A stretch of 64,000 nt of DNA from NCBI RefSeq assembly GCF_008801695.1, contig NZ_VZPF01000008.1, positions 1-64,000 on the forward strand, written 5' to 3'. Positions 19,220 to 49,874 of the stretch are shown in pieces; the stretch's first letter is position 1, and every line of letters starts with the position of its first letter. Both the position numbers and the translations under genes were made by a program. The notes beneath the pieces are model-generated. The model saw only the letters and a program-made list of their open reading frames with translations, was not told the origin of the DNA and ran no database searches. The DNA is from Pantoea stewartii subsp. stewartii. GTDB lineage: Bacteria > Pseudomonadota > Gammaproteobacteria > Enterobacterales > Enterobacteriaceae.

Positions 19220-19238
19220 TTGACCTTCCCCTTGATGG
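19220..19238. repeat. attL core
   Basis: TTGACCTTCCCCTTGATGG, identical to attR at 49844-49862. Host DNA lies to the left and phage DNA (TGGGATTC) to the right. Only the -35 and first part of the CueR operator are present here. Confidence 0.9.
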
Positions 19239-19296
19239 TGGGATTCTGAAAGGCGCAGCCCCGTAAGGTACTGCGCCGAATCAATATTTTAAAGAC

Positions 19297-20319
19297 TCAA
19301 CTAGCCTTTAAAACCCCCTCATTGCCTCCAGAGTGTGGACACAATGTGGACATGCCGCTGAGAGGATTATAGCTCACAGCGTCCAGCAAATAGTCTGGTG
19401 CGAAGTGTGCGTAAACCATCGTTTGAGAAATGTCCGCATGACCCAAAATTCGCTGTAAGGCAATAATGTTGCCCCCCTTCATCATGAAGTGCGTTGCGAA
19501 AGTGTGCCGCAAAGCATGGGCCGCCTGTCCATCTGGCAAGTTAGGTTTTGCAGCCTTCATCCGGAGGCGGAACGTTTTATAACTAACACGGAATAAACGC
19601 CCTGATTTGCGGTTTTTAACAATGCTAGCAACCTCATCGGAGATCGGGACAACGCGCCGTTCACCATTTTTTGTGAGAGTGAACATTACACGGTTCCCGA
19701 CTATATTTTCAGCCTTAAGCTGATAAGCCTCACCCCAACGAGCACCGGTAGCTAAAAGTAAAACGGCTATACGGTAGTAATCACCCGCCGTCATCCCCAG
19801 CAAACATTCAACTTCCTCTTGTGTCAGATAGGTCATTTCGGTTTTAGGCTCTTTCAGTGCCTTGATCGCACTTACCGGGTTTTCCCCATGGAACTCGTCA
19901 ATCTCTGCCATTGATTTGAATATGCCACTAAGGGCAAACAGATCATGGTTGATAGTGGATGCTTTGATCCCTTGTTCAAGTCGATAGGCCCGGTAATCAA
20001 TCAGGCTTCTCGCATCAATCTGGTAAATCATTGGATCCCCCATGTCGGTGCATATGCAATTAACGGCACTGAGACGGCGATTTGCATAACTCTTGTTGCG
20101 TCCGATAAGTTGCCACCAAAGCGCTATAAATTCGCTTAAGCGTCGTTTATCTGCTGGCCGGTTCAGGTATTCATGATTCTGGTACTTCGCAATGATGCTG
20201 CGCTCAAAAGCATGTGCCTCAGCTTTGCGTTCAAACTTCCTACGGATGCGCTTTCCGTCGCGCCCCCTAGGCCTTACATCCACTTCATAGCGACCATCTT
20301 CGAGTTTCTTAACGGACAT
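19297..20319 (-). CDS. int: P2-type tyrosine integrase
   Basis: 340 residues from ATG 20319 with GGAGGG upstream (P2 Int 337). It has an N-terminal arm-binding region (SVKKLEDGRYEVDVRPRGRD), a SAM-like core-binding domain, and the catalytic domain with Arg in GARWGEAYQL, HALRHTFATHFM (His-x-x-Arg), LGH and the nucleophile Tyr in QTMVYAHF. It recombines attP with the copA promoter. Its 3' end carries two of the arm-type TGTGGACA repeats. It is transcribed towards attL, with the C repressor gene upstream on the same strand, as in P2. Confidence 0.95.
   Translation of the reverse strand: MSVKKLEDGRYEVDVRPRGRDGKRIRRKFERKAEAHAFERSIIAKYQNHEYLNRPADKRRLSEFIALWWQLIGRNKSYANRRLSAVNCICTDMGDPMIYQIDARSLIDYRAYRLEQGIKASTINHDLFALSGIFKSMAEIDEFHGENPVSAIKALKEPKTEMTYLTQEEVECLLGMTAGDYYRIAVLLLATGARWGEAYQLKAENIVGNRVMFTLTKNGERRVVPISDEVASIVKNRKSGRLFRVSYKTFRLRMKAAKPNLPDGQAAHALRHTFATHFMMKGGNIIALQRILGHADISQTMVYAHFAPDYLLDAVSYNPLSGMSTLCPHSGGNEGVLKAS
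19334..19352. promoter_or_regulatory. Int arm-type sites, left side
   Basis: Two direct copies of TGTGGACA at 19334-19341 and 19345-19352, 11 bp apart, inside the int 3' end. Similar repeats occur near attR. P2 integrase is known to bind arm sites with this kind of sequence. Confidence 0.65.
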
Positions 20320-20388
20320 AAGAAATCCCTCCAATAGTCAGTTCACTATCCTGGTAACAAATAGTGAAAATGTAATGCTTATAGATCG

Positions 20389-20688
20389 TTAACCAGTCTG
20401 TTTCCCGGAGAGGTCTGATTTTGTTTCTCCAGGCCCATTGTGTGCGAGAGCCGGTGCTATCTGGCCTCGGCTTGGATCAACGCGGTCATATAAGAACCAC
20501 TCTTGATACTTATGAAATCTGGGGTGCCCGAATATTTTGATCGCAGAATCTAAAGTCATTCGTGATTTTCCACTCTCATATCCATGATACGTAGCGTAAT
20601 TTATCCCAACTAAATCAGTAAGTTGCCTTTTTGATAAGCGCTCAGAAAAACGGATTAGGGATAATTTCTCTTGTTGTGTTATTGACAT
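20389..20688 (-). CDS. C: P2-type immunity repressor C
   Basis: 99 residues from ATG 20688, exactly the length of P2 C. It has an N-terminal helix-turn-helix (RQLTDLVGINYATYHGYESG) and the family C-terminus RGQIAPALAHNGPGETKSDL, which in P2 reads SGQIAPALAH. It represses the early promoter and maintains lysogeny. There is no RecA-type cleavage domain, so like P2 it may be poorly SOS-inducible. Its start codon overlaps the -35 of the opposing early promoter. Confidence 0.92.
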   Translation of the reverse strand: MSITQQEKLSLIRFSERLSKRQLTDLVGINYATYHGYESGKSRMTLDSAIKIFGHPRFHKYQEWFLYDRVDPSRGQIAPALAHNGPGETKSDLSGKQTG

Positions 20689-20740
20689 ATTTTGCACATC
20701 TCCACATAATTCAACCAAACTCCACATCAAACACATGTGG
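20682..20740 (+). promoter_or_regulatory. Early promoter Pe and C operators
   Basis: TTGACA (20682-20687), 17-bp spacer, CATAAT (20705-20710) directed at the cox-like gene. CTCCACAT occurs at 20700-20707 and 20720-20727, exactly 20 bp apart, and a related ACATGTGG at 20733-20740. Two direct repeats about two helical turns apart, one overlapping the -10, match the way P2 C binds its operator. Confidence 0.75.
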
Positions 20741-20800
20741 CGACCCAACCAAAAGAGGACTCAGCAAGCCTCTTTAATGGCTAATCAGGGAGTCTATCAA

Positions 20801-21265
20801 ATGACAGAATCACGAGAAATCGAATTAAACGCGGGATCTCAACATTTACGGCAGTTCCCGTTAGACAGCGCCAGAGTTGCGCGCATCTGCAAAATGTCCC
20901 AAACGCAAGCTGATGCCATTCGCGACATGAACACCGAAGAACTACAAACGCAGATCTACGTCACCCCTGCCGAGTTTGCCTACCTCACTGGACGTACTCT
21001 CAAATCAGTTCGCAACCTGATGGATCGCGCGCAGATTCCAGTTCACCGCGAAGGAATGCCCGGTTCAAAGCGCCCAAAACGTTTCATCATGCTTCAAGAA
21101 TATTGGGAGGCTGTAGCGCATTGCCGCGCACTGGTCACCCCTGAAGAAAGGCATTACATCGACAGACTAATGCGCGACAAAGCCACTTATCGACGCACCA
21201 CCGGAAACAAACACAATGTGTTGAAGCGTAATAGCCGCAATGTGCTATCACATGGCCGGGCATAG
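20801..21265 (+). CDS. cox: Cox-like excisionase / early regulator
   Basis: 154 residues from ATG 20801, preceded by AGGGAG; an upstream ATG at 20777 is in frame. The centre YVTPAEFAYLTGRTLKSVRN plus a basic linker and IMLQEYWEAVAH resembles P2 Cox (YQEFAKLIGKSTGAVRRMID), a MerR/AlpA-like winged helix. It is longer than P2 Cox (91) with an extra N-terminal 50 residues and a basic tail. Cox represses the C promoter and promotes excision. It is the first gene of the early operon. Confidence 0.75.
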   Translation: MTESREIELNAGSQHLRQFPLDSARVARICKMSQTQADAIRDMNTEELQTQIYVTPAEFAYLTGRTLKSVRNLMDRAQIPVHREGMPGSKRPKRFIMLQEYWEAVAHCRALVTPEERHYIDRLMRDKATYRRTTGNKHNVLKRNSRNVLSHGRA

Positions 21266-21277
21266 GGAAAATCAGAC

Positions 21278-21701: not shown

Positions 21702-21713
21702 CAGGTACACGAT

Positions 21714-24084: not shown

Positions 24085-24365
24085 GCATGGAAACCACTCT
24101 CGATCTTCCCGTTTGGATGGCTATTGATTTAGCTCGCACTGATGCTTATGCCACGGTTTATGCGGCAGTTGATCGCATCCTAGACCGCTGGAAATTGCAT
24201 GATTTTTGGGTTGTTGAATTTGAAGCTTTTGACGTCTGTGAAGGGGTCTATGTTCGTAATCAATTTACATTCGATACGGCTAAAGAAGCATACAAATTTA
24301 AGCCAGGGCGCGCCGTTACGTGGAGTTATGACACCGCTGATTTTGATGATGAGTTGCCGTTCTGA
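24081..24365 (+). CDS. Phage protein, unknown function
   Basis: 94 residues from ATG 24081, overlapping the methylase stop. The sequence is acidic and aromatic (LHDFWVVEFEAFDVCEGVYV), with a C-terminal acidic tail ending DFDDELPF, which could mimic DNA or bind a basic partner. The stop overlaps gene A (TGATG). Unrecognised. Confidence 0.55.
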   Translation: MSMETTLDLPVWMAIDLARTDAYATVYAAVDRILDRWKLHDFWVVEFEAFDVCEGVYVRNQFTFDTAKEAYKFKPGRAVTWSYDTADFDDELPF

Positions 24366-26992
24366 TGAGCGCCCCAGCAAGTGGGCGCAGCGCCCCAACT
24401 CCGCCCCCTCCGTATCCGGGTAGCGCACCAGACGCCACCCGGTACGATTACGAATGGCAGAAGCCAAAAGCTGCCATTTGTGTTGATAAGACTCCCGTTG
24501 TTGATCTAGTTGAGCTGGGTCAAGAACAGGAGTTTTTGGCGTGGGTGAAAGTTACCCTTGCGCCGCTACCTCGCTTTATTCGCCTGCGTCTGGCCTCCCG
24601 CATTGACAGCATTCACACCATGAAGGGCAGACACATCGCCCGTCTGGCGCTGCGCGATATCATCCGCAGGGATCTGCCGCCTATCAACATGGTGAATGAG
24701 CAATACGCTATTGCGATGACCGATGAGGCTAAATCTCAGGCTGATACAGCATTCAAAGGGTTAAACCCGCTTTACCACACGTTTAACACTCTGCATGGAT
24801 TGGTTGAGCGCTTTAACCACCTGCCGGACTTCACGCCGGAAGATGTTGAGCTACTGGCGCAGGATATCGCTATCTATATGCGGTCTGTGCTGAGTGAAGT
24901 TCACGAAACGGTAGAGACGCAAAGTGATCGTAAATATGCCGGATACCTTTACACCGAAGCGGCTGTCCTCGCGCGGCTTTTCTTTCTTACGCCGCCGAGC
25001 TGGACAAAGTATTGCCGGGGGGCGCTGTTTATTGATGAGGCTACTACCGGCATTAGCAAGATGCTGGATGATCGCTACTGGCACCGTAACCTGAAAAAGT
25101 ACGCCACCCGCTGGCGTGAGCACCTGCATATTGCCTTTGGTGATGTAAAGCGGGGCGCTGCACCGTATTGCAGTAAGCACCACGTTGATGAGTGGGATGC
25201 CAGACGCAAGCGCAGCCGCGCGATCATGGCCCGCCTTGAGCTGGAAGACCAGGACACCAAAGAGCGTATTTCGCTTATTGAGCAGATCGATAAGAGCATA
25301 TCCAACCCGGCATTGCGCCGCGTTGAACTTATGACCCGTATCGGCGGCTTTGAGAAAGTTGCCACCGAAAGCGGCTATGCAGGCCAGTTTTTTACTCTGA
25401 CTGCGCCTTCCAAATATCACGCATATACCGTATTCGGTCATCGTAATGCCAAATGGAATGGTGCCAGCCCCAGAGCAACGCAGCGCTACCTTAACCGGGT
25501 ATGGCAAAAGATCCGTGCTGAGCTGGCCCGCCGTGAAATCCCCGTCTTTGGTCTGAGGGTGGCGGAGTCTCACCACGATGGTACGCCGCACTGGCACGGT
25601 CTGCTGTTCTCTTTGCCTGAACATTCCGCTGAACTGCTGGAAGTAATGGAAGACTACGCAACCCGCGAGGATGCGGAAGAGTTGCAGGGAAAACACGGTA
25701 ATCAACCGCGCTTTGATATGAAGCCGATCGATCAGGAAATCGGCAGCGCCACCGGCTACGTGGTGAAGTACATCAGTAAGAATATTGACGGCTACGCGCT
25801 CGACGGTGAAACCGACGACGAGAGCGGTCGGCCGCTGAAAGAAACGTCAAAACATGCTACCGCGTGGGCATCGTGCTGGGGCATCCGTCAGTTTCAGTTT
25901 TTGGGCGGCGCGCCGGTATCGGTCTGGCGTGAGTTGCGCCGGTTCCGCAATCAGGAACAGGCCGACAAGATAAACCCGCTATTTGCTGAGCTGCACCGCG
26001 CTGCGGATGCTGGCGACTGGCAGCAATACACCCAATTGCAGGGCGGGGCACTGGTTGCCCGCCGTGATCTGCCGTTGCGCATCTGGTACCAGCAGAAGGA
26101 CGAGCCGAATGATTACGGCGAGTATCTGGATCTTATCAAAGGCCTGGTGATGCCAGCCGTTCACATCCCACCCATTGAAACCCGCCTGCATACCTACCGC
26201 ATTGTGCGTAAGAAACCGGAAGTTTTAGACGACTCCGGGCAGGCCGTTGACTTTGATTTTGACCTTCGGGGCGCGTCCGCGCCCTCTAGGACTCGTGTCA
26301 ATAACTGTACCGAGGTTAAAAAACATACAAAATCAGGGGGTGACAATTCCCCACCAGTTGAGCCTGAACAGTATGAAATTGGTCAAATGACCCGCGAGCA
26401 GAAAAAACGGCTCAACGAAAGCCTCAGAAACTTCAAACCGGAACGGCAAAAATCACCTGCCGATGTGTTTGAGTCGCTTGCCAGCGCTATAACCGCGTCA
26501 GATTGTGATGAGGTCGATCAGGCGCGGGCAGAAAACTACATGAAAGTGGCCGCAGCTATCCGCAATGAAGTGCCAACCCGTAAAAACAGTACCGTGAAGC
26601 CTGTGCCACTGACGGAATCGCTTAAATATCAGCTTTCAGCATGGGGCATAAAATCGGAACTTGATATTCATGCTCTTCGGTGTGGGGCTGCGCTGTCTTT
26701 TGGTGATCAGATGGTTTACCTGAAAGGTGGCTATCTGGTAGAAAAAACCAAAGCGTCATATTGTAGGGCGAGGAACTGTAATGCTGAATTAACCCCGGAT
26801 GATAAGGCATTCGGTAACGAGGGGCTGTGTCTGGCATGTACGGCGAAGTTGATCGGAACGGCAGCAATCAAACAGCGTCGTGACGATGCCGAACAAAGGC
26901 AAAAAGCAGAAAGAAAACAGGAGAATGACGCGCTTCTGGGAAGGCTTAAGGTTGCGCTCATCAACAGGGGGCTGCATGGGAAGGTATCATGA
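24365..26992 (+). CDS. A: Rolling-circle replication initiator, P2 gpA type
   Basis: 875 residues (P2 gpA 761). HUH-type nuclease: metal-binding HWHGLLF near residue 410 in ESHHDGTPHWHG, and the paired tyrosines in YVVKYISKNIDGY near 464 and 468, the same spacing as the active tyrosines of P2 gpA. Between residues 630 and 660 the coding DNA carries the likely origin. The C-terminal end has a CxxxxC...CxxC zinc-finger-like segment (CRARNCNAEL, LCLACTAKL). It nicks phage DNA in cis, attaches to the 5' end and starts leading-strand synthesis with host Rep and Pol III. Confidence 0.95.
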   Translation: MSAPASGRSAPTPPPPYPGSAPDATRYDYEWQKPKAAICVDKTPVVDLVELGQEQEFLAWVKVTLAPLPRFIRLRLASRIDSIHTMKGRHIARLALRDIIRRDLPPINMVNEQYAIAMTDEAKSQADTAFKGLNPLYHTFNTLHGLVERFNHLPDFTPEDVELLAQDIAIYMRSVLSEVHETVETQSDRKYAGYLYTEAAVLARLFFLTPPSWTKYCRGALFIDEATTGISKMLDDRYWHRNLKKYATRWREHLHIAFGDVKRGAAPYCSKHHVDEWDARRKRSRAIMARLELEDQDTKERISLIEQIDKSISNPALRRVELMTRIGGFEKVATESGYAGQFFTLTAPSKYHAYTVFGHRNAKWNGASPRATQRYLNRVWQKIRAELARREIPVFGLRVAESHHDGTPHWHGLLFSLPEHSAELLEVMEDYATREDAEELQGKHGNQPRFDMKPIDQEIGSATGYVVKYISKNIDGYALDGETDDESGRPLKETSKHATAWASCWGIRQFQFLGGAPVSVWRELRRFRNQEQADKINPLFAELHRAADAGDWQQYTQLQGGALVARRDLPLRIWYQQKDEPNDYGEYLDLIKGLVMPAVHIPPIETRLHTYRIVRKKPEVLDDSGQAVDFDFDLRGASAPSRTRVNNCTEVKKHTKSGGDNSPPVEPEQYEIGQMTREQKKRLNESLRNFKPERQKSPADVFESLASAITASDCDEVDQARAENYMKVAAAIRNEVPTRKNSTVKPVPLTESLKYQLSAWGIKSELDIHALRCGAALSFGDQMVYLKGGYLVEKTKASYCRARNCNAELTPDDKAFGNEGLCLACTAKLIGTAAIKQRRDDAEQRQKAERKQENDALLGRLKVALINRGLHGKVS
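26268..26302. other. Probable phage replication origin (gpA nick site) in gene A
   Basis: A 7-bp hairpin GGGCGCG/CGCGCCC with a 2-nt loop (26269-26284) is followed by TCTAGGACTCGTGTCAA. P2 ori also lies inside gene A, with a GC-rich hairpin and a CGGAGTCCTGTCAA-type sequence. The resemblance and position support this, but the exact nick is not provable here. Confidence 0.6.
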
Positions 26993-28508: not shown

Positions 28509-29567
28509 TTACTCGTCTTTGAGCAGAGCGTAGGGATTAAAGCGGATCACTTCCTGACCGAGCCAGTCATTGACGCCCTTCATTGCCTCCATCACTGGCA
28601 ACATTTCGTTGATGGCGAAGACGCGCGCGGCCTTCTCAACATCACCTAGCGAGCCGTTGCCTTCCGGCATTGCGCCCATCAGCTGCGGCGGGATGCGGTG
28701 AGCGTCGCGCAAATCGTTGCGCGTTGCTGATTTGATGTTAAGAAACTCATCCTTTGCCGATATCTGGCTGAACGGCAACAGTTGCACGCCATCCTTGCCG
28801 CCGCCCGGCGCGTGGATCAGCACGTTTTTGAAGGAGCCTTTTCCTCTGGCCTGTGACAGCGTCTTTTGCACCACCTTTATGCTTTCCTGATCCACCTTCT
28901 CCGAACCGACATAGAGAATACATCCGGCATGGGATCCGTTATCGTAATAGAGTTTGCGGAACTTATCGGCGGAATGTGACAGGCTGGCGGACAGTAGCGC
29001 CCCCATATATTCCGGCATACCGTAGATTTCCTGATGAATGTCCGGGTTCATGATGTGGCAGACTTCGCCCGCCTTGAACTCGTATTCATCCTTCCACTGC
29101 CGGATAAACCAGTAGGTATCAAGGTCGCTTCCCCGTCGCGTGTTCAGGGCCGGAACATGCTTAAGTTTGAGCGGGTCTCCCAGGCGATTAGACCGACGCT
29201 CAAGATAGGCATTGCCGAAGACAAACCAGTCCAGTGCAAACGCAGAGAACGCCTGACGTGAGAGTAACGGGTGAGGGATATAGCACCCGGTCAGCACATT
29301 ACGTTTGAAATAAAGCGCCGACTGATGCAGCGGGGACTGTGCGAACGCACGGGTTAACCCTTTCCAGTCTATTGGCGTCTCGTAGTACCGGCCATTATCG
29401 ACGCAGCACATGCTGTCCAGCAGATCATAGCCGTCTGTTACTGAATATGGCCCGTCAAACGTGAAGGCGCTGAGCGCCGGATCGCTTCTCAGCGCGTCAG
29501 AAATATCAGGCTGTCCGGCACCGCCACTGCTGGCAGTGTGATTGTTTTTGTAGGTGCGCTTCTTCAT
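28509..29567 (-). CDS. Q: Portal protein (gpQ)
   Basis: 352 residues (P2 Q 344). Typical of the P2/HK97 portal group, with LRDAHRIPPQLMGAMPEGNG and VFAINEMLPVMEAM near the C-terminus. Twelve copies form the head vertex through which DNA is packaged. Its start overlaps the P stop (ATGA-type), so P and Q form one operon, read leftward as in P2. Confidence 0.95.
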   Translation of the reverse strand: MKKRTYKNNHTASSGGAGQPDISDALRSDPALSAFTFDGPYSVTDGYDLLDSMCCVDNGRYYETPIDWKGLTRAFAQSPLHQSALYFKRNVLTGCYIPHPLLSRQAFSAFALDWFVFGNAYLERRSNRLGDPLKLKHVPALNTRRGSDLDTYWFIRQWKDEYEFKAGEVCHIMNPDIHQEIYGMPEYMGALLSASLSHSADKFRKLYYDNGSHAGCILYVGSEKVDQESIKVVQKTLSQARGKGSFKNVLIHAPGGGKDGVQLLPFSQISAKDEFLNIKSATRNDLRDAHRIPPQLMGAMPEGNGSLGDVEKAARVFAINEMLPVMEAMKGVNDWLGQEVIRFNPYALLKDE

Positions 29568-31297
29568 CAGAACTCCATAGCAAACCCGCCGCTGCCACTC
29601 TCCTGGCCCAGCGGTTCGTTAATAATGGCGAGCATATTCGCCCAGGCTAAATCCCCGTGGCTGACGCCGCGCGAGCGGTCAGTGTCATAGGTGATGAATC
29701 CGCCCGGCGTCTTTACCTTGCGAACAGAGTTAAAGGCGTTGATCAGGGCGCGCTCGCTGCGGTCATATTCCCATCGCCCGGCGCGGATCAGCTGTAGCAT
29801 TTTCAGCACCAAGGCGCGCTTTGACGTCATTGACATGGTGTAGGGCATCGCCATCGGGAAAAACTTCTTCACTATCTGGTAAACGGCTTCACCATTACCG
29901 CCCGTCACGTCGATGCCGACATGCTGAACGTTGTATTTGAAGGTGAAGTTTTCGATAACTTTCGCCTGCTCTTCAAATTCAAGGCCGCGCACCTGTTCTG
30001 TTTCCACCGTACGGAATTTACCGCCCGGCACCAGTGGCGGAACCACAACGCAAATCGCGCCGCTGTCACCGTTGCCGCTGCTGCCGTTGGCGTCATAGCC
30101 TATCCAGACCGGGCGATTACCCATCGGCCTGGACGCGAAAGGCTTCCAGTCCGGCCATTCGTCATAACCATCTGCCCCGCAGCCAATCAGTGCGTTAAGG
30201 TTGAAGGCTGACTCGCCATCGCGCACGAACTCGCACATGTACAGGTTGCGGAATTCATCCTCGCTGTTTTCATCCTGAATCTCTTCAAGGTCGGTATATT
30301 CCCAGCCGTGGTCTATCACATCCTTCAGGGTGACAATCTGACGCCAGGTTTTATCCGGGCATAACAGCCCGCTGTTCAGCGTTTTCCAGCCCACATCAAA
30401 CGCTTTGCGCTGTGCCTTCGGGCGTTTCTCATTCCAGCGATCGCCCGTCCAGAACGGGTAGGCCTCATGGGTCTCGCCTGACGGCGTGGAAAAGTAGGTA
30501 CGCGTCAGCCCCTTCAGCGTTGCCATCGCACCTGCAACCTTTCGCAGGTTGGTGAAGTTGCTGACCCAGAAGAATTCGTCAAACTTCAGGTTGCCCGTAT
30601 ATGACTGCGCTGTTGCAGCGGACGTGCCGAGGAAATGCAGCTCTGCGCCGTTACTCAGTACGATTTTGTCACCGCCCTTAAGCTCAACGTCCACCTCTTC
30701 AGCCATCTTCTGAATGAATCCCCTGAACTGGTGCGCCTGACGGCGGGATGCAGACAAAAATATCTGGTTGCGCTGGTACGGGTATTTCACATCATCGCGC
30801 AGCGCATCAAGCAACGCCTCGCGTGCAAAGTACCAGGTTGCGCCAATCTGGCGGGACTTCAGTATCATGCGGTTTCGGTGATGGCGTTGCTCATACCAGC
30901 CGCGTTGATGCCACGAAAGGGAATCAAGTATTTTCTCCCGCAGCGCGACGATCTGTTCTTCGGTGAAGTGGTTTTTCAGCTTGCGCTTGCGTGGCTTTTT
31001 GCCCGCGCCAGCCCCTGCCGGTTGTCCGTCAGACAGCTTTTTCAGTTGCCGGGTCAGCAGGTCAATCTCCTTGAAGTCTCCCCCGGTCTTGTCTTTCTTG
31101 TCCGTAAGCTGGATGAGGCGCGCATCCATCGACTGGCTGACGCGCTGGACGGGCGGCGTTTCATCCCATTCATCGCGTTTCTTCCAAGCGTAAATTGTGT
31201 TCTGATTAATCCCCATCAGGCGCGCGATCTCCGCTGGCGGGTAGCCCTGCCAGTAAAGTTGTTTTGCCCTCTGACGTACAAAAGCGTCCTGTATCAT
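29567..31297 (-). CDS. P: Terminase ATPase/large subunit (gpP)
   Basis: 576 residues (P2 P 590) from ATG 31297 with GGAGGGC. An N-terminal helix-turn-helix (PPAEIARLMGINQNTIYAWK) precedes a P-loop-like LKSRQIGATW near residue 165 and the nuclease domain (IGYDANGSSGNGDSGAICVV; HVGIDVTGGNG). It cuts and pumps DNA into the head with gpM. The promoter is divergent from O across a 160-bp region with an Ogr-type box. Confidence 0.95.
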   Translation of the reverse strand: MIQDAFVRQRAKQLYWQGYPPAEIARLMGINQNTIYAWKKRDEWDETPPVQRVSQSMDARLIQLTDKKDKTGGDFKEIDLLTRQLKKLSDGQPAGAGAGKKPRKRKLKNHFTEEQIVALREKILDSLSWHQRGWYEQRHHRNRMILKSRQIGATWYFAREALLDALRDDVKYPYQRNQIFLSASRRQAHQFRGFIQKMAEEVDVELKGGDKIVLSNGAELHFLGTSAATAQSYTGNLKFDEFFWVSNFTNLRKVAGAMATLKGLTRTYFSTPSGETHEAYPFWTGDRWNEKRPKAQRKAFDVGWKTLNSGLLCPDKTWRQIVTLKDVIDHGWEYTDLEEIQDENSEDEFRNLYMCEFVRDGESAFNLNALIGCGADGYDEWPDWKPFASRPMGNRPVWIGYDANGSSGNGDSGAICVVVPPLVPGGKFRTVETEQVRGLEFEEQAKVIENFTFKYNVQHVGIDVTGGNGEAVYQIVKKFFPMAMPYTMSMTSKRALVLKMLQLIRAGRWEYDRSERALINAFNSVRKVKTPGGFITYDTDRSRGVSHGDLAWANMLAIINEPLGQESGSGGFAMEF

Positions 31298-37029: not shown

Positions 37030-37660
37030 CGATCTCTTCCGTGAGCTGGATCAGGTATTCAGCGACATACTGGCGGGCACCTCGCAGGCTGGACGTGTTC
37101 GCACCGCTCGCGCGGTTGGTCAGGCACTGCGAAAGAGCCAGCAACAGCGCATTAAAGCGCAGCAAACCCCGGAAGGTTCGCCATACCCTGCCCGCCGTCG
37201 CCGGGTGCTGCGTTCTCAGCAGGGTATTGTATTTGTCTGGCAGGGAGAGATCCGCCGCCTCAAAAACTGGCACGGTGGGCGGGGAAAATACGGACGAACG
37301 ATTACCGGCTTTGATGAAGAGCGCAACGATATTCGCACCTTTTACCGCAGCGACATTGAGCGTTACATCGAGATCAATACGCGCTCAGTGCGCCGCAGCA
37401 CTGCGAAGAAGGTGCCGATGTTTCAGCGGTTGCGCAGTTATCGCTTTCTCAAAATGCGCGCTGATTCTGGCGGTACTTCCGTGGGTTATGACGGCGTGGC
37501 CGCGCGTATTGCGCGTGTGCACCAGTACGGCCAGCGCGATCAGGTCGGGCCGGGTGCTTTTGCTAAATATCCGGTGCGTGAGCTGCTGGGCTTTACCGCT
37601 GGCGATGAGCGGATGATTACGGAGCAGGTGGTTAACAGCCTGGGGAGTGCCGCACGATGA
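37022..37660 (+). CDS. S: Tail completion/virion morphogenesis protein (gpS)
   Basis: 212 residues, longer than P2 S (150). The N-terminal helix and SQQQRIKAQQTPEGSPYPAR are family features, as is the C-terminal ARIARVHQYGQRDQVGPGA...RELLGFT. The extra length is a basic middle segment (residues about 75-140). It overlaps V, leaving no room for a separate V promoter as in P2. Confidence 0.88.
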   Translation: MSNDLFRELDQVFSDILAGTSQAGRVRTARAVGQALRKSQQQRIKAQQTPEGSPYPARRRRVLRSQQGIVFVWQGEIRRLKNWHGGRGKYGRTITGFDEERNDIRTFYRSDIERYIEINTRSVRRSTAKKVPMFQRLRSYRFLKMRADSGGTSVGYDGVAARIARVHQYGQRDQVGPGAFAKYPVRELLGFTAGDERMITEQVVNSLGSAAR

Positions 37661-38232
37661 GCGCTGAACTGATCCGCCTGCTGGAAAATGTCCTCCGCGT
37701 CGGCGTCGTTATTGCCGTTGATGAAGAGAGCTGGCGCGTGCGCGTGCAAAGCGGCGAGCTTCAGACCGACTGGCTGCGCTGGAACACCACGCGCGCCGGG
37801 GCATTCAATATCTGGGTGCCGCCTTCCGTGGGTGAGCAGGTCTGGCTGGGCTGTATCGGTGGCAACCCTGAAACGGCGGTCATTATCGGCAGTCTCTACA
37901 GCAGTGACCATCCTGCACCGGGCAGCAGCCTGAAAGAGATTGTGCTGACAGCGCCAGACGGTGCCTCTTTTCGCTATGACGCAGAGGCCAGCGCGCTGGA
38001 AGCGCAGGGCATGAAAACCGCACATATCAAAGCCTCTGTCAGCGTCACGCTTGAAACGCCGGTTGTAGAATGCACCGATCATCTGAAAGCGCGGACGTTC
38101 GAACTGACGGAAGGTGGCACGATGAAGGGTGATGTGACTCATTCTGGCGGATCGCTTTCGTCTAACGGCAAAGTCCTGCACTCGCACAAACACCCTGGCG
38201 ACAGCGGCGGCACTACAGGGGCACCGCTATGA
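37657..38232 (+). CDS. V: Baseplate spike (gpV)
   Basis: 191 residues (P2 V 211). An OB-fold start (GVVIAVDEESWRVRVQSGEL), beta-helical middle, and the C-terminal tip HSHKHPGDSGGTTGAPL, whose His-x-His type residues bind iron in P2 gpV. The trimeric spike punctures the outer membrane. Confidence 0.93.
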   Translation: MSAELIRLLENVLRVGVVIAVDEESWRVRVQSGELQTDWLRWNTTRAGAFNIWVPPSVGEQVWLGCIGGNPETAVIIGSLYSSDHPAPGSSLKEIVLTAPDGASFRYDAEASALEAQGMKTAHIKASVSVTLETPVVECTDHLKARTFELTEGGTMKGDVTHSGGSLSSNGKVLHSHKHPGDSGGTTGAPL

Positions 38233-42180: not shown

Positions 42181-45147
42181 TTAATCTCTGTCTTTGAAGC
42201 TGCCGCGATTGAGCCGCGCAAGGCGGGCCATTTCGGCATTCACTGCGTCGGCGGCAATCCGGCCAATTTCGCGCGCGTCCTGCCGATCAACGCCGTGAAG
42301 GTGTACGTGGATTTCCCCCGTAAAGCCGCCTGCGGCAACCGGTATATTGCTGGCGCTGCGGCTGACAGGCAGAAGTTCAGCCTGTTTAACGGGAAGCGAT
42401 GCCGCCACCACTGCGGGGCGTGCGCTTAACCCGTTGTTCCTGACCGTGCTGGCCAGTTGCGATTCCTTCCATTCCCCACGAACGGCCAGCGCACGCGGCA
42501 GGTTTTTAAACACGATATCGCCGGGGCCGATCTTCTTCGTGTTGTCGGCTGTCGTTTTGGTGTTGCTGTCGATACTCTGCAACCTGCGCATAGTGCCGTT
42601 ATCACCGGTCAGCGGTGATGTGGGTTGCGGTGCGCCAGGCGGAACGTTATTCACCTCAACTTTTTTCGGTGCAACCTTCGCTATATCTCCCTGAAGAAGG
42701 GCGACTTTATCCTGAAGAACAGCCATGCGCTGTGCGTCTTCGATCTTCTTCCTGGCTTTTTCGGCCTCATCTGGCAGAACGCCGAGCTTTTCAAGGATCC
42801 AAGCTAATGTATCCAGTAGCATTTTTGCGGGAGCCAGGACAAGCTGGAGCGCACCGCCTAGGACATTGCCGAACACTTCACCGGCGCTGGCACATTTATC
42901 CAGCGTTTCCTTGCTGGACTCCATCGGGGAAAGCAGAGATTTGAACCAGTTAAAGACCTGGCTGATACCGTTGCTCATTGCATCAAAGATGGGGCTGAAC
43001 TGCGCGAAGGTCTCGCGTAATGGTGCGAGTCTTTCCATGATGCCGGTGAATACACCTGCAAAAAATGCTTTAAGAGGCTCCCAATACCGCCAGATAAGCA
43101 CTCCGGCAGCAACAAACGCCGCTACTAACAGGCCAATCGGACTAAACAGCAGTGATAGCGCTGTACCCAGCATAGACACCGCAGTAGTGATCATGCTCCA
43201 TATGGCCGGTAAACCTGTCAGGCGAAGGGCGAGCATTCCGAGGTTTTTAGTCAGCGCTCCCAGCGCAGCACCAGGTGCAAGAAATGCCCCTGCAAGTGCG
43301 CCGCGCATCGCGGGGGTGATGGTTGAAACTCCCCGCATTTTCCCTGCTAACGATCCGAGAACTGGCCCCCATCCGCGCACGCTTGCCATTGCAGGGCCGG
43401 AAGCTGTGCCGAGTGTTCTCAGAGCGGCAATCGTTCCGGTTATACCTCTGCCACCTGTCAGCAGGGTAAAACCTAACTGGAGTTTAGCCAGCGGGCCCAT
43501 CAGCAGACCGATCGCCAGCGATGTGCCGCCAATGGCAGCGGTCAGTGCCAGAATGCTACCGCCGACAACCAGCAGGGATTGGGCGAGCTTCGGATTCTCT
43601 TTCGCCCACTGCGTCATATTCCCCACAACGTCACTCAGTCCCTGAGTCAAGCCGCGAAGCTGATTGTTGACGAGATCGTTAATCTGGATGCGGAAGCCTT
43701 CCCAGGCGCTGTCCAGATTTTTGAGATCGCCATCAAGGTTATCCGCCATTATTTTGGCGGCTTTCTGCGCCTCACCTTTGGCGTTTTTCAGTTCACCCAG
43801 CAGCTTCTGAAGTTCGCCGCTCCCGGCTGACATAACCAGTGCCTGCAATGACTTTGACGCCTCTTCACCGGCAATATCTTTGAAGAATGAGAGCTTATCG
43901 GTATCTCCGTACTTGCTGATCTTTTTATAGAGTTCCGTGAGAACCTCTTCAGCAGGGCGCATTTTTCCCGTGGCGTCAGCAACGTCTACGCCCAGTTCCT
44001 TGAGCGCGGTTTTTGCCCTGCCGGTAGGAGCGGCAAGGCGTGAAAACGCGGCCTGTAATCCAGTCCCGGCTATACTCCCGCGCAAACCAACGTTTGCCAT
44101 CACGCCAATCATGGCTGTTGTCTGTTCGACGCTGACGCCAAGGCTGGAAAGACCTGTCCCGGCGTACTTCATTGCCTCGCCGATATTTTGCAGATCGGTG
44201 TTGGTACGTGTGAACGCGCCCGTTAATACGTCACTGACGCGATCCATTTCTTTGGGATCGAGGCGGAACTGAGACAGGATGTTTGAGCTGATATCGGCGC
44301 TTTCACCCAAATCCATACCACCGGCCAGCGCCATATTGAGTACGCCGGGCAGTGCGGCCTGAATGGCCTGCGGAGTGAAACCGGCCATTGCAAGAAACGC
44401 CTGCCCGCTGGCGGCGTCAGTCGTGGTGAACTGCGTTTCAGCGCCCAGCTTTTTGGCCTGCTCACGAAGTGCGGAAAATTCTGCTGAGCTTTTATCTATG
44501 CGGGTAAGAGCCTGCACGCGGGACATTTCACGGTCAAACCCAACGGCGGGGGATAGGAAGCGTCCCGCTGCGTAACCGGCAGCAGTGGCCCCGGCAACGG
44601 CCATCGTTCCACCGCCGCGAAGTTTGCCCGCCGTTTGCTGCATCTGGTCGTAGCGCGCCCGTGCCTGCGTGACAGCGGCAAGCTGTCGCCGTTCCCGCTC
44701 AAGCGTCTGGTTGTATTGTTCGGTGCGGCGTATGGCACTCTGAATGGTGCGATCGCTGCCGACAAGTGAAACGCCGTGGCTGCGCAGCGCCTGTGAGGCG
44801 GCGCGCAGCTTAACCATTTCCTGCGTGCGTGCAGAATTAAGGCGCTCCAGCTTTGCGGCCAGCGCTGCCATATGTGCCTTTTGCTTGTCTGTAAGCTGTG
44901 TACCTTCCCGCTGCGTCTGATTCAGGCCTTCAAGCGTCCGGCTGGCGTCGTCAATTTTGCGGGAGGTCTTTTGCACACTGTCGCGCAGACGGTTGAATGT
45001 GCGGGACTGACTGTCCAGATCTTTAATGCTGGACTGTGTTTTTTTGAGGGATTCAGACAAACCGCCCGCACTCTGGCGGGCGGCATTGACCGGGCGGGTA
45101 AGTTTATCGATCGCGCTGAACGCGACGCGGATATTAAGGCTTTTCAC
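42181..45147 (-). CDS. T: Tape measure protein (gpT)
   Basis: About 988 residues if it starts at GTG 45147, which has GGAG nine bases upstream; a GTG at 45183 would add 12. It begins with SLNIRVAFSAIDKLTRPVNA as in P2 gpT, then a long coiled coil (residues about 40-180), the TP901-type tape-measure core (AKKLGAETQFTTTDAASGQA), and hydrophobic segments at 540-720. It sets tail length and may help DNA pass the membrane. It overlaps the E' frame. Confidence 0.93.
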   Translation of the reverse strand: MKSLNIRVAFSAIDKLTRPVNAARQSAGGLSESLKKTQSSIKDLDSQSRTFNRLRDSVQKTSRKIDDASRTLEGLNQTQREGTQLTDKQKAHMAALAAKLERLNSARTQEMVKLRAASQALRSHGVSLVGSDRTIQSAIRRTEQYNQTLERERRQLAAVTQARARYDQMQQTAGKLRGGGTMAVAGATAAGYAAGRFLSPAVGFDREMSRVQALTRIDKSSAEFSALREQAKKLGAETQFTTTDAASGQAFLAMAGFTPQAIQAALPGVLNMALAGGMDLGESADISSNILSQFRLDPKEMDRVSDVLTGAFTRTNTDLQNIGEAMKYAGTGLSSLGVSVEQTTAMIGVMANVGLRGSIAGTGLQAAFSRLAAPTGRAKTALKELGVDVADATGKMRPAEEVLTELYKKISKYGDTDKLSFFKDIAGEEASKSLQALVMSAGSGELQKLLGELKNAKGEAQKAAKIMADNLDGDLKNLDSAWEGFRIQINDLVNNQLRGLTQGLSDVVGNMTQWAKENPKLAQSLLVVGGSILALTAAIGGTSLAIGLLMGPLAKLQLGFTLLTGGRGITGTIAALRTLGTASGPAMASVRGWGPVLGSLAGKMRGVSTITPAMRGALAGAFLAPGAALGALTKNLGMLALRLTGLPAIWSMITTAVSMLGTALSLLFSPIGLLVAAFVAAGVLIWRYWEPLKAFFAGVFTGIMERLAPLRETFAQFSPIFDAMSNGISQVFNWFKSLLSPMESSKETLDKCASAGEVFGNVLGGALQLVLAPAKMLLDTLAWILEKLGVLPDEAEKARKKIEDAQRMAVLQDKVALLQGDIAKVAPKKVEVNNVPPGAPQPTSPLTGDNGTMRRLQSIDSNTKTTADNTKKIGPGDIVFKNLPRALAVRGEWKESQLASTVRNNGLSARPAVVAASLPVKQAELLPVSRSASNIPVAAGGFTGEIHVHLHGVDRQDAREIGRIAADAVNAEMARLARLNRGSFKDRD

Positions 45148-45612
45148 TGTCACTGGCTCCACTTCGGACAGCCGCCCGCTCACGCCAGGCTATGACTTCG
45201 CCCAGTTCCATCGTGAAGACTTCAGAGGGCGGCCAGTTGAAAACAACCGCGATATCAGCAACCAGATCGTCGATCAGGTCGAACCGCAGGAGTGTTACTG
45301 ATTCTCCGTCTCCGCCTCGTTCGATGCTCCAGACCCCGCAGGCGTCAAAAAAGGGACGAGCGCTTCTGACAGGCTGACGAAATCGCGGGTATCCATTTCG
45401 TTAATTTCGGTTTGCTTGAGGCGCGGTGAAGTTACACGGGTCAGCAGCACCGCCACCGAATCCACATCCATATTCATCACGTTGACCAGCTTCAGACCGC
45501 GCAGGGAGCCAGCCTGTTTGATTTCATCCGTGATCGCTACCTGAGTAATTTTTTCATCGCCGCGAACAACGGGTTTTGCCAGCGTAATGGCGTTATCAGT
45601 TTTCTTGCTCAT
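45134..45612 (-). CDS. Tail chaperone E+E' (-1 frameshift product)
   Basis: The slippery heptamer TTTTTTG (minus strand, 45352-45346) stands in frame as CC[T TTT TTG] near the end of E. A -1 shift continues into a frame encoding LLRFDLIDDLVADIAVVFNW, PPSEVFTMELGEVIAWRERA and a stop at 45134. The result is about 159 residues. P2 uses the same T TTT TTG to make E+E', which binds the tape measure during tail assembly. Confidence 0.85.
45295..45612 (-). CDS. E: Tail chaperone E (zero-frame product)
   Basis: 105 residues from ATG 45612 (P2 E 91). It starts MSKKTDNAITLAKPVVRGDE and ends after the slippery site. Most ribosomes should make this form; a minority shift to E+E'. It lies between FII and T, as expected for a tail assembly chaperone. 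Confidence 0.9.
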   Translation of the reverse strand: MSKKTDNAITLAKPVVRGDEKITQVAITDEIKQAGSLRGLKLVNVMNMDVDSVAVLLTRVTSPRLKQTEINEMDTRDFVSLSEALVPFLTPAGSGASNEAETENQ

Positions 45613-45660
45613 TGTTGAATGCTCCGGGCGGCACGGGTGTGCCGCCACTTTTCAGGTTAA

Positions 45661-46176
45661 TCAGTTACCCATTCCCAGCGCAGACGTAATGCGGTCAGGG
45701 TAGATATTCTTGCCGTCTTTCTTGTAGATGAAGTTCAGCAGATCAAACTCAAACAGCGGCTTGTCGTCGATAGTGAGCTTGTAATAGGTGTTCTTCATCG
45801 TATAGCTGACGGAAGTGTCTTCTCCCTGCTTGCTTTCGCCGCCGTCCATTTCGGTGATGCGGCCGCGTAGTTCAACCTCAACCAGCAGGCTTTCGCCATC
45901 GGTGTAATACTCACCAGCGAAGCGGAAACGGGTCTCGTCGATATCGCCGCAGTAGTTCAGCAAAAGCGACTGAACCAGACCGCCAACCACCATCGTGGTG
46001 TCCAGTGCGCCACTGTCCAGACCGAGATCTACCGCAGCAGAGCCAATCATCCCCCCGCCCTGAAAATCTTCAGTTTTACGGGTCAGCTTTGGCAGCGTCA
46101 CGGAAGATACTTTGCCAATGCAGTTGCTGCCGTTCACAAAGCAGGTGAACAGGCGCAGTTTGTGAGGAACCGCCAT
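45661..46176 (-). CDS. FII: Major tail tube protein (gpFII)
   Basis: 171 residues (P2 FII 172). It starts MAVPHKLRLFTCFVNGSNCI and has VSSVTLPKLTRKTEDFQGGG and KNTYYKLTIDDKPLFEFDLL. Stacked hexamers form the tail tube. It abuts the FI stop. Confidence 0.94.
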   Translation of the reverse strand: MAVPHKLRLFTCFVNGSNCIGKVSSVTLPKLTRKTEDFQGGGMIGSAAVDLGLDSGALDTTMVVGGLVQSLLLNYCGDIDETRFRFAGEYYTDGESLLVEVELRGRITEMDGGESKQGEDTSVSYTMKNTYYKLTIDDKPLFEFDLLNFIYKKDGKNIYPDRITSALGMGN

Positions 46177-47358
46177 TTATGCACCTCCCAGCGAAGAGAA
46201 CGCCGATTCAAAGTATTCGTCGGTGAAGGTCTGGTAGAGCGTCAGATCTTCCATTGGTGGAACCGGCGTATATTTATAGCGAATGCGCACCTGACCCTGG
46301 CGAAGACCCGTTGTCGGGTTATCCAGGATATCAAACCAGCATTCAGCGCCGATTAGCCGTCCCTGCGTCACCAGTGAATTGAGTTTGCCGCTGATGCCGC
46401 TAACCACGTCCTTAACGTTGGCCGGGGTCAGCGGTTCGTCCACTGATTCGAATTGCGCCTCAGCGATACTGTCAGCCAGAATCTGTGCCGTACGGGTATA
46501 AACCTCAAAGATATAATCTTTGGTGTCTGTAACGCGGTTGCCCCAGAACCGGAAACCGTTACGCTTGATGAGCGTCGTGACCTCCTTGTTGTTGAGTTCG
46601 TTCGCGTCGCTGTCTTCGGCCTGAAGCGACCAGAAAACATCCTGAGAAATACCCAGCACGTTGCTTACCGACACATTGGAAAGCGATTTGTGCCAGCCCT
46701 GATTGTTGTCAATCAGCGCGCGAAGTCCGCAGGCATAGGCCGGGGCCGGGAAGGTTTCGTTTTCTCCTGTCAGCGGGTTGTAGGCGATGAAGTCAGGCCA
46801 GATAAGCATTAGCTCGCGATAGGCGAAGGTCGCACGATATGCGGTGGCTTCAGCCATCGTTTTGCATCCATAGCAGCTGGCGTAGACGAATGCGCGCAGG
46901 TTCTGTGCAATGACGCACAGCGCGGAGGTCACTTCTTCCGTGTCGTAGCCTGGCACGGCCAGAATGCGCGGACGATAACCTACCTTCTGTTCGGCAGTCA
47001 GAAACGCGTACATGCCGGTATAGCTACCGTCTTCTGCTGTGCCCCCCATAATGAGCTGCGACTGCGTTTTAGCGCCTTCCTCTTCCGTGGCTGCGGCCAC
47101 GCGCACAACGATAACCTTCGGGCTGGTCTGGTCAGCGATGGCTTTAAGCGTTTTGTACAGGGAGCCGGTTTTACCCGCCTTACCCAGCACGTTGTTAACC
47201 CGCGTCAGTAACACGGGGGTATTCAGGGGAAAGGTTTCCGCATCGGCATCATCCGCCACGGCAACGACCCCAATGACACTGGATTCAATGTCATTGATGG
47301 CCGTTACCAGGTCGGTATTCTCCCGGACGCGTACACCGTGGAAACGTGTCTCTGACAT
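46177..47358 (-). CDS. FI: Tail sheath protein (gpFI)
   Basis: 393 residues from ATG 47358 with GGTGG (P2 FI 396); the frame is open for 15 more codons upstream without a good start. MSETRFHGVRVRENTDLVTA and DADAETFPLNTPVLLTRV align with P2 FI, as does the C-terminal KYTPVPPMEDLTLYQTFTDE. The contractile sheath protein. It heads the leftward operon and is divergent from D. Confidence 0.94.
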   Translation of the reverse strand: MSETRFHGVRVRENTDLVTAINDIESSVIGVVAVADDADAETFPLNTPVLLTRVNNVLGKAGKTGSLYKTLKAIADQTSPKVIVVRVAAATEEEGAKTQSQLIMGGTAEDGSYTGMYAFLTAEQKVGYRPRILAVPGYDTEEVTSALCVIAQNLRAFVYASCYGCKTMAEATAYRATFAYRELMLIWPDFIAYNPLTGENETFPAPAYACGLRALIDNNQGWHKSLSNVSVSNVLGISQDVFWSLQAEDSDANELNNKEVTTLIKRNGFRFWGNRVTDTKDYIFEVYTRTAQILADSIAEAQFESVDEPLTPANVKDVVSGISGKLNSLVTQGRLIGAECWFDILDNPTTGLRQGQVRIRYKYTPVPPMEDLTLYQTFTDEYFESAFSSLGGA

Positions 47359-47431
47359 GTTAGCCACCATTACGTTATTGAGTTCGCAGTGATAATCCCC
47401 CATGTCTGACCGCCACTCACGCTATTGCGGG

Positions 47432-48648: not shown

Positions 48649-48687
48649 AATGAAATGGAGTTCAACTCCCACAGGGGAGCCATCATT

Positions 48688-48936
48688 ATGTTCAGATGTC
48701 CATTTTGCGGCGCTATGGCCCGCACCCGTACCAGCCGTAAAATTACTGATATGACAATCCGGCAATATCACCAGTGTCAGAATCTGGAATGTAGCCGATC
48801 ATTTACCACGCTTAACAGCGTGGAAAGGGAAGTAACAAAGCGTGCCGGTACAGCACCGTTACCGCCTGACTTTATCCCCCGCGATGCCTTCCCGGCGTCT
48901 CACTATGGAAGGGATCAGCTAAATCTTGCTTTATAA
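48688..48936 (+). CDS. ogr: Late transcription activator Ogr/Delta
   Basis: 82 residues from ATG 48688 with GGGGAG (P2 Ogr 72). The zinc-binding residues are in FRCPFCGAMARTRTSR and QYHQCQNLECSRSF, the exact Ogr layout C-x2-C...C-x4-C. It activates late promoters by binding near -55 and contacting RNA polymerase alpha. The boxes at 31364 and 47432 are its likely sites here. Confidence 0.94.
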   Translation: MFRCPFCGAMARTRTSRKITDMTIRQYHQCQNLECSRSFTTLNSVEREVTKRAGTAPLPPDFIPRDAFPASHYGRDQLNLAL

Positions 48937-48962: not shown

Positions 48963-48967
48963 TTGTT

Positions 48968-49660
48968 TCATCGTAAGTATTCGACAATATGACCAGTCTT
49001 TAAATCGATTTTAGCGGATAACTGATTTTTCACCGTTGCGCCGTAACTATTGGCACCTTGATAAGTGGTTGTGGCAATGGCGTAAGGTGCTGCACCATCC
49101 AGGATAAACCGATACTTAGTTTCCAAATGTTTGAAGGAAGACGGATCATTCATGTCGTCTTTGATTGCGGCAATAAGCGGTTGGTATGAGCTATCAAACA
49201 ATCTGACGTTACTTTTAAAAACGTCAAAATCTACCATCTTGGCTAAAGCAGACGGATCCTTTTGATAATCTTGCTTACACCAATCAAGCGCCTCGGAAGC
49301 CTTGATATCATCATTTTTCGTATATGAGTGCTGGCTAATACATTTGTAAAAATCGGTTGATGCGCTTAGGGATATGCCAGCTTGAGATAAATAGCTTTCA
49401 ATAATTTTAGAGCGCTCACCTTTATCTATGCTTCGCCATTGCTTGAGTGAGGTGTTTTTATCCTTAGACGATGTATCATTTGGTGCCTCTGGTATATAAG
49501 AGCACGCCTTTGGAATCACCCCCAAAACCACTATGAGAACAGCGAGGGCAGCTAAAGGGTGCCACCATCGTTCCCCCGGTTTTTTAACGTCACAATACGG
49601 ACATTTTTTTTCTTTACGAGCGACTTCGCTCCCACACTTCCTGCATGTTGTCATTGTCAT
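48968..49660 (-). CDS. Zinc-ribbon membrane-anchored protein, prophage cargo
   Basis: 230 residues from ATG 49660 with GGAG. An N-terminal zinc ribbon (CRKCGSEVARKEKKCPYC), then one transmembrane helix (HPLAALAVLIVVLGVIPKAC), and a 175-residue C-terminal domain that should be periplasmic, with several cysteines and the end KNQLSAKIDLKTGHIVEYLR. It has no structural phage role and lies between ogr and attR in opposite orientation, the usual place for a lysogenic-conversion gene. Codon use is AT-rich. Function unknown. Confidence 0.75.
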   Translation of the reverse strand: MTMTTCRKCGSEVARKEKKCPYCDVKKPGERWWHPLAALAVLIVVLGVIPKACSYIPEAPNDTSSKDKNTSLKQWRSIDKGERSKIIESYLSQAGISLSASTDFYKCISQHSYTKNDDIKASEALDWCKQDYQKDPSALAKMVDFDVFKSNVRLFDSSYQPLIAAIKDDMNDPSSFKHLETKYRFILDGAAPYAIATTTYQGANSYGATVKNQLSAKIDLKTGHIVEYLR

Positions 49661-49729
49661 CTATGACGCTCCTTAAAGTAGGGAAATTGCGCCCAAAGTT
49701 TAACCGTCATGAGCTACACAAAAAAGTAA

Positions 49730-49755
49730 AAAGCCCCGCAATATTGCGAGGCTTT
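49730..49755. terminator. Terminator-like hairpin near attR
   Basis: AAAGCCCCGCAAT / ATTGCGAGGCTTT, 13-bp stem with one mismatch, T-rich on either side. It should stop phage transcription before the copA promoter. Confidence 0.75.
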
Positions 49756-49765
49756 GTCTTTGTAA

Positions 49766-49804
49766 TGTGGACACTTTTGTCGAAGTGTGGACGCTATGTG
49801 GACA
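49766..49804. promoter_or_regulatory. Int arm-type sites, right side
   Basis: TGTGGACA at 49766-49773, TGTGGACG at 49786-49793 and TGTGGACA at 49797-49804, all direct. The last two are 11 bp apart, the same spacing as the pair in int. Together with 19334-19352 they form the two arms of attP. Confidence 0.65.
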
Positions 49805-49843
49805 CTGATTTTAAAAATCCCTTTCAATCAGCAATTTAAAAGC

Positions 49844-49862
49844 TTGACCTTCCCCTTGATGG
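49844..49862. repeat. attR core
   Basis: TTGACCTTCCCCTTGATGG, identical to attL at 19220-19238. It is followed by host sequence AAGGTTTATCCT, which completes the copA promoter. Confidence 0.9.
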
Positions 49863-49874
49863 AAGGTTTATCCT
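49844..49874 (+). promoter_or_regulatory. copA promoter with CueR operator
   Basis: -35 TTGACC (49844-49849), 19-bp spacer, -10 TATCCT (49869-49874). The spacer region holds ACCTTCC-CCTTGAT-GGAAGGT (49847-49867), a perfect 7-bp dyad and the known CueR site of enterobacterial copA. MerR-type activation requires this over-long spacer. Its left half up to 49862 lies within the phage att core. Confidence 0.92.

What the first reader, a model, noticed from the sequence alone, without database searches (positions are those of the whole stretch)
19220..49874. P2-like prophage integrated inside the CueR operator and promoter of copA, which it rebuilds
The 19-bp att core TTGACCTTCCCCTTGATGG includes the copA -35 and most of the 21-bp CueR dyad. 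At attR the host bases AAGGT and TATCCT complete the dyad, the 19-bp spacer and the -10, so copA keeps a full CueR promoter with phage DNA upstream. The phage thus uses a copper-sensor operator as attB while preserving it. CueR bound there would sit exactly where Int must act, so copper status and excision could affect each other (inference).
Basis: partly seen in the sequence, partly recalled or inferred. Interest (0 to 1): 0.9.

Follow-up and report, generated by a model that had tools for sequence, protein, structure and literature searches.

The report
Phage that rebuilds a copper-sensor switch
A family of P2-like phages inserts itself into the DNA switch that the bacterial copper sensor CueR uses to turn on the copper pump gene, and does so in a way that leaves the pump with a complete switch; whether copper influences the phage is not known.

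Summary
Confirmed and extended. The 19-bp repeat is exact at 19220-19238 and 49844-49862. At attR the -35, CueR dyad, 19-bp spacer and -10 of copA are complete. A same-genus genome (G011) shows the predicted empty site: cueR, zinc-ribbon gene, intact promoter, copA.

It is not a one-off. All 19 testable distinct integrases at 64.9% identity or more (the window's included) end beside this core; none of 82 testable ones at 63.4% or less does. The core-bearing ones form one clade, found in Enterobacteriaceae, Hafniaceae and Yersiniaceae, E. coli included. In Edwardsiella, whose copA operator differs, the phage sits in another CueR-like promoter, of a DUF305 gene, so the target looks like the operator, not copA.

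Of 12 elements read at both ends, 11 have identical cores; Yersinia pekkanenii differs at one base. The zinc-ribbon block beside cueR is probably the wreck of an older prophage at the same site.

CueR/Int competition and copper-gated excision remain untested. Of 50,697 phage records none carries a clade integrase (best 63.4%). New variant of a known kind.

The parts
17723..18139 (-). cueR (MerR-family copper regulator); only close CueR in this genome
   Evidence: Pfam MerR_1/MerR-DNA-bind; next hit in the genome 28%
18150..18168 (+). decayed core copy beside cueR, where relatives have the empty site
   Evidence: 5 mismatches to the core; weak profile match in the window, 4.7 bits; better preserved in G011
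18540..18873 (+). zinc-ribbon gene with broken frame, probably cargo of an older P2-like prophage
   Evidence: 81% DNA identity to the gene left of the core in L229; 80% match in G011; P2-like phages carry relatives
19220..19238 (+). attL core
   Evidence: exact repeat
19252..19277 (-). hairpin between int and attL, possible weak int terminator
   Evidence: fold of 19236-19300, -22.3 kcal/mol, z -3.4; not listed by the terminator scan
19297..20334 (-). int, P2-type tyrosine integrase
   Evidence: Pfam Phage_integrase and Int_N; 54.7% to P2 Int
19334..19351 (+). two TGTGGAC sites, P'-arm Int sites by analogy with P2
   Evidence: sequence scan and P2 annotation
20389..20748 (-). ORF next to int, possible phage repressor (position only)
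   Evidence: ORF list; no Pfam match
24365..26992 (+). replication initiation protein (P2 A type)
   Evidence: phrog_91
28509..31297 (-). portal and large terminase genes
   Evidence: phrog_68, phrog_5751
32317..33366 (+). major head protein
   Evidence: phrog_70
37657..38232 (+). baseplate assembly protein
   Evidence: phrog_9992
42181..47403 (-). tail region with tape measure (42181-45183) and sheath (46177-47403)
   Evidence: phrog_28, phrog_23
48655..48936 (+). Ogr-like late regulator
   Evidence: phrog_603
48968..49660 (-). right-end gene of unknown function
   Evidence: ORF; no Pfam match
49730..49755 (.). terminator-like hairpin between the phage genes and attR
   Evidence: scan
49766..49803 (+). 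three TGTGGAC sites, P-arm Int sites by analogy with P2
   Evidence: sequence scan and P2 annotation
49844..49862 (+). attR core; its first six bases are the copA -35
   Evidence: exact repeat
49847..49867 (.). CueR dyad ACCTTCC-CCTTGAT-GGAAGGT, completed by host bases
   Evidence: sequence; same dyad in 18 of 35 same-genus genomes
49869..49874 (+). copA -10 TATCCT
   Evidence: sequence; layout as in PMC7911910
49929..52445 (+). copA, copper-exporting P-type ATPase
   Evidence: Pfam E1-E2_ATPase, HMA, Hydrolase

Best explanation
This is a P2-like prophage of a lineage whose integrase is specialised on CueR-type operators as attB. A MerR-type promoter keeps its control between -35 and -10, so it tolerates foreign DNA upstream if the -35 is still there. 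The attP core holds the -35, the left half of the dyad and the dyad centre. Recombination inside this shared segment leaves, at attR, a full -35, dyad, 19-bp spacer and -10 in front of copA, and at attL only half a dyad joined to phage DNA. The operator serves as a widely conserved address, as tRNA genes do for other phages. Shown: the anatomy, the empty sites, the repetition across hosts, one integrase clade with one core. Inferred: that the rebuilt promoter works, that the crossover lies in the right part of the core so that -35 and left half-dyad at attR come from the phage, and that selection on the phage keeps them.
For: Exact 19-bp repeat. Empty sites in relatives and in G011. 19 of 19 testable integrases at 64.9% identity or more have the core beside int (0-3 mismatches) against 0 of 82 at 63.4% or less (best 6 mismatches); one clade at 100/100. 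12 elements read at both ends, 11 of them leading into a copA gene. An attP-like contig with a single core between both phage ends (G436). Edwardsiella prophage in a DUF305 promoter of the same type while its copA promoter lacks the core sequence. Positions 14-19 agree at the two ends in 12 of 12 elements although five forms exist between elements, as an overlap region would. P2-like arm sites on both sides.
Against: No promoter or recombination assay. In Yersinia pekkanenii the cores differ at position 9 (attL C, attR A); both bases occur in native Yersinia promoters (A in 8, C in 10 of 18 others), so the crossover side is not settled and 'identical repair' is not universal. All attR cores except that one were found with a pattern that fixed the first 11-13 bases, so their left-half constancy is partly by construction. 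CueR control of DUF305 in Edwardsiella is inferred, and the E. piscicida empty site was not seen. The lineage is rare: of 394 genomes of the order only the window's own had such an integrase (next best 54%), and 15 of 5426 E. coli genomes.
Confidence: 0.8

Rival explanations
1. Address only: Int recognises a conserved sequence that happens to be an operator. Promoter completeness is the automatic by-product of core identity, and neither copper nor CueR matters to the phage.
For: Phages generally use conserved sites and restore them (recalled). Nothing in the window apart from the two ends matches the core within 3 mismatches, so no CueR-type site is apparent inside the phage. One lysogen has a core that differs between its ends.
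Against: The first three bases of the -35 (TTG) lie outside the CueR dyad, have no mirror counterpart in the phage right half-sites (14 forms among 19), and are still kept in all attR cores read; this leans to selection for the promoter but is not proof.
Confidence: 0.5
2. Copper coupling: CueR bound at attB or attR blocks or helps Int, so copper status influences integration and excision.
For: The dyad and the Int core occupy the same bases. MerR-family proteins bind their operator in both the off and the on state (passages of PMC7911910).
Against: No binding or excision data. Because CueR-type proteins stay bound with and without metal, occupancy may change little with copper (recalled).
Confidence: 0.18
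3. Regulator hijack: where cueR is divergent from copA, the prophage separates cueR from its own promoter and phage DNA takes over, as HK022 does at torS.
For: cueR starts about 8-10 bp from the attL core in Enterobacter, Rouxiella, Yersinia, Citrobacter R56 and four viral contigs. A rough score puts the best native cueR promoter beyond the core in 3 of 4 hosts. HK022 precedent (PMC6814406, passages seen).
Against: The score used matrix values recalled from memory; after integration it fell in 2 of these 3 (Enterobacter, Rouxiella) and rose in 1 (Citrobacter R56); Kosakonia was unchanged. In this window the 1-kb block separates cueR from attL, and in E. coli cueR lies beyond glsA and ybaT.
Confidence: 0.35

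Closest known systems
Phage P2 integration system
   Same: Integrase 54.7% identical; attP with TGTGGAC arm sites on both sides of the core and int next to it
   Different: P2 core AAAAAATAAGCCCGTGTAAGGGAGATT is unrelated to the CueR operator
Yersinia phage vB_YenM_42.18 (Firavirus)
   Same: Closest integrase among 50,697 phage records, 63.4%; in the sister group of the clade
   Different: No CueR-type core near int or across the joined record ends (best 6 mismatches)
Phage HK022 at torS-torT
   Same: Prophage between divergent genes that share a regulator site (PMC6814406, passages seen)
   Different: HK022 separates torS from the IscR site and drives torS from a phage promoter; here the copA operator and promoter are left complete
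CueR-controlled copA promoter (MerR type)
   Same: -35, 19-bp spacer, inverted repeat, -10 (PMC7911910, passages seen)
   Different: DNA upstream of the -35 is phage DNA

Membership tests
P2-like prophage (Peduoviridae) | P2-type integrase and structural/replication genes | tested here: met
   Int, A-type replication protein, portal, terminase, capsid, baseplate, tape measure, sheath, Ogr-like regulator
P2-like prophage (Peduoviridae) | arm-type Int sites on both sides of the core | tested here: met
   TGTGGAC at 19334, 19345 and 49766, 49786, 49797, as in P2; binding not tested
P2-like prophage (Peduoviridae) | able to excise and form particles | not testable with these tools
   G436 attP-like contig is from a related phage, not this one
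CueR-controlled promoter | dyad between -35 and -10 with 19-bp spacer | tested here: met
   49844-49874
CueR-controlled promoter | copper induction through CueR | not testable with these tools
   needs an assay
HK022-like takeover of a host regulator gene | host regulator driven by a phage promoter after integration | tested here: inconclusive
   rough promoter scores, mixed in four hosts

The most novel reading that the evidence does not exclude
The lineage uses the CueR operator as a control point as well as an address: CueR and Int compete for one dyad at attB and attR, so copper stress sets when the phage can integrate or leave, and in divergent cueR-copA hosts the prophage also takes over cueR expression and re-tunes copper tolerance.
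Probability: 0.15. Interest if true: 0.85.

Novelty: new variant of a known kind. Interest (0 to 1): 0.57.

Why it matters
Well-known attB sites are tRNA genes, gene ends and intergenic spacers (recalled). Here one integrase clade has settled on a transcription-factor operator inside a promoter and leaves it complete, in at least three bacterial families. This suggests why MerR-type promoters make tolerable insertion sites (their control lies downstream of the -35) and offers a clean system to ask whether a regulator and a recombinase that read the same dyad influence each other. It would also show one operator being broken into and rebuilt more than once if the older relic is real.

Tried and rejected
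Chance repeat: rejected, mean 0.02 expected. tRNA-type att site: the only tRNA found in the window is at 2688-2764. All P2-like integrases use this site: rejected, 0 of 82. copA itself as the target: disfavoured by Edwardsiella. I then asked whether native Yersinia promoters settle which side it came from; they do not.

Relic test: with the core included, G011 matches the phage left-end profile (E 1.4e-4) and right-end profile (E 9.8e-5), but the core gives much of the score. Arms-only profiles are weak there (5.5 bits, E 1.4; 3.7 bits, E 3.6), although each is the best hit in that 18-kb locus and lies in register with the neighbouring core (exact for the left, within one base for the right); a reversed-sequence control reached 5.2 bits with the left profile. 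In the window the left relic scores only 4.7 bits (E 4.3). So the relic is probable, not proven. LSJC7 cueR lies about 3 kb from attL behind other ORFs; no relic was seen there.

Literature: nine searches listed no paper whose title or abstract start reports the copA promoter or CueR operator as attB. Passages only were seen in PMC12829572, PMC6814406, PMC2808357, PMC7911910 and PMC2869309. Most subscription papers are not in the library.
Full report
OBSERVATION. The 19-bp core is present exactly at both stated places and at no other place in the window with up to three mismatches. The DNA between is a P2-like prophage. At attR the host bases complete the -35 TTGACC, a 19-bp spacer, the -10 TATCCT and the perfect dyad ACCTTCC-N7-GGAAGGT; the -10 ends 55 bp before the copA start codon. 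This is the layout described for E. coli and Enterobacter copA (PMC7911910, passages seen).

EMPTY SITES. Of 35 same-genus genomes other than the window's own, 18 carry the exact dyad pattern. In all 18 copA starts 86-87 bp after the first base of the -35; cueR starts 10-51 bp before it in 17 and 863 bp before it in one. The pattern left four centre bases and the three bases before it free, and all 18 have the same letters there. By contrast the 40 bp upstream average 62% agreement and the stretch 31-84 bp after the -35's first base 67%. G011, whose CueR is 94% and CopA 86% identical to the window's, has cueR, zinc-ribbon gene, TTGACCTTCCCCTTGAGGG-AAGGT and copA with no prophage between.

ONE CLADE, ONE ADDRESS. 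Integrase relatives came from genome contigs (71 loci), viral contigs (best 80 of 489), 394 genomes of the order (loci of the best matches), an E. coli genome and phage records. After merging identical proteins 135 remained; 101 had at least 90 nt beyond int. All 19 of these at 64.9% identity or more have the core with 0-3 mismatches; none of the 82 at 63.4% or less does (best 6). The other 34 lacked flank and were left out; one of them, L059 with 77 nt, also shows the core. Some of the 19 are near-copies, so the independent events are fewer. In a tree of 87 rows, 20 core-bearing integrases and one without flank form a branch with 100/100 support; the sister group includes Yersinia phage 42.18, which lacks the core. 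Named hosts are Citrobacter, Enterobacter, Kosakonia, Edwardsiella, Rouxiella, Yersinia and LSJC7 and E. coli. Only the window's genome among 394 of the order has such an integrase. The best of 608 phage records with a match is 63.4%.

BOTH ENDS. Twelve elements or remnants were read at both ends: the window, Citrobacter youngae (across contig ends), Citrobacter R56 (remnant), Edwardsiella piscicida, Enterobacter RIT418, Kosakonia sacchari, Rouxiella silvae, LSJC7 (ends on two contigs), Yersinia pekkanenii (two contigs), viral contig G443, E. coli Ch1 and E. coli 33-6 (remnant). Eleven lead into a copA gene at attR (in G443 only 38% identical to the window's); Edwardsiella does not. In 11 of 12 the 19 bases agree at both ends. 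In Y. pekkanenii attL has TTGACCTTCCCC and attR TTGACCTTACCC. Positions 14-19 agree at the two ends in all 12, although five forms occur between elements. That is what an overlap region in the right part of the core would give, and it would make the -35 and left half-dyad at attR phage-derived. It is not settled: A and C at position 9 are both native in Yersinia (8 and 10 of 18 others), and the nearest relatives do not decide it. Eleven of the 12 attR cores were found with patterns that fixed their first 11-13 bases, so their constancy there is partly by construction. The 19 attL cores, found with up to four mismatches allowed, are also constant over the first 13 bases. The phage right half-site has 14 forms among 19. 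Contig G436 has a single core between both phage ends, an attP.

EDWARDSIELLA. The E. piscicida prophage is in the promoter of a DUF305 gene reading TTGACC-N19-TAGGAT, while the copA promoter there reads TTGACCTTAACCTTG, unlike the core. Four other Edwardsiella genomes have a similar promoter before the DUF305 gene, in three of them with the cysteine-synthase-like gene still beside it. So the operator type, rather than copA, appears to be the target. CueR control of DUF305 is inferred.

E. COLI. The copA-glsA region is in one piece in 5354 of 5372 genomes with a match (inserts under about 950 bp would not show). The remaining 18 equal in number the 15 genomes in which an integrase of this lineage runs through the core into glsA (Ch1 examined) plus 3 with a decayed element bearing IS1. 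I did not list the 18 themselves. Five of the 15 are records of one isolate.

AN OLDER PROPHAGE AT THE SAME PLACE. The window's 18490-19219 block has a copy beside cueR and copA only in G011; two weaker matches (67-69%) in other genomes of the 60 searched lie on contigs other than the one with their operator. Beside cueR is a decayed core with 5 mismatches. In G011 both ends of the block match phage-end profiles when the core is included (E 1.4e-4 and 9.8e-5), weakly without it. Seventeen phage records, P2-like where I looked, carry relatives of the zinc-ribbon gene, one near its annotated attR. I put the older-prophage reading at about 70%.

MECHANISM. Arm sites lie on both sides as in P2. 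The economical model is ordinary P2-type recombination with a core made of the -35, left half and centre of the CueR dyad. Two inverted half-sites around a 7-bp centre fit a tyrosine recombinase, but the crossover was not located. Address-only use and selection for promoter repair cannot be separated by sequence alone. CueR/Int competition is untested.

CONSEQUENCE FOR cueR. In eight elements cueR starts about 8-10 bp from the attL core, so integration may replace its promoter with phage DNA, as HK022 does at torS (PMC6814406, passages seen). Rough scores in four hosts are mixed. In this window the 1-kb block lies between.

VERDICT.

Noticed in passing
window 18140-19219; L346 8058-9225: 1-kb block with a zinc-ribbon gene between cueR and the copA promoter, probably the remains of an older P2-like prophage at the same operator.
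   Followed up: partly
L020 (G023): Another same-genus genome has 863 bp between cueR and an intact copA promoter; not examined for a relic.
   Followed up: no
L164, phage left end after the core: The phage half-site and next bases read TTGACC-N19-TATTAA, so attL there resembles a full CueR-type promoter pointing into the phage, antisense to int.
   Followed up: no
L312/L332 (Edwardsiella piscicida): Prophage with 97% identical integrase in the promoter of a DUF305 gene instead of copA.
   Followed up: yes
L355, L356, L387 (E. coli CP053720, CP050031, CP050036): Decayed elements beside glsA at the copA site with IS1, phage tail-fibre genes, a Hok/Gef gene and a serine acetyltransferase gene; copA is seen next to the element in the last two.
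   Followed up: partly
G000:C3:14593-15558 and 20702-21706: Two more P2-type integrases (44% and 39%) elsewhere in the same genome.
   Followed up: no
window 48968-49660 (-): Right-end phage gene without Pfam match whose start (MTMTTCRKCGSEVARKEKKCPYC) looks like a zinc ribbon; no DNA match among phage records.
   Followed up: no
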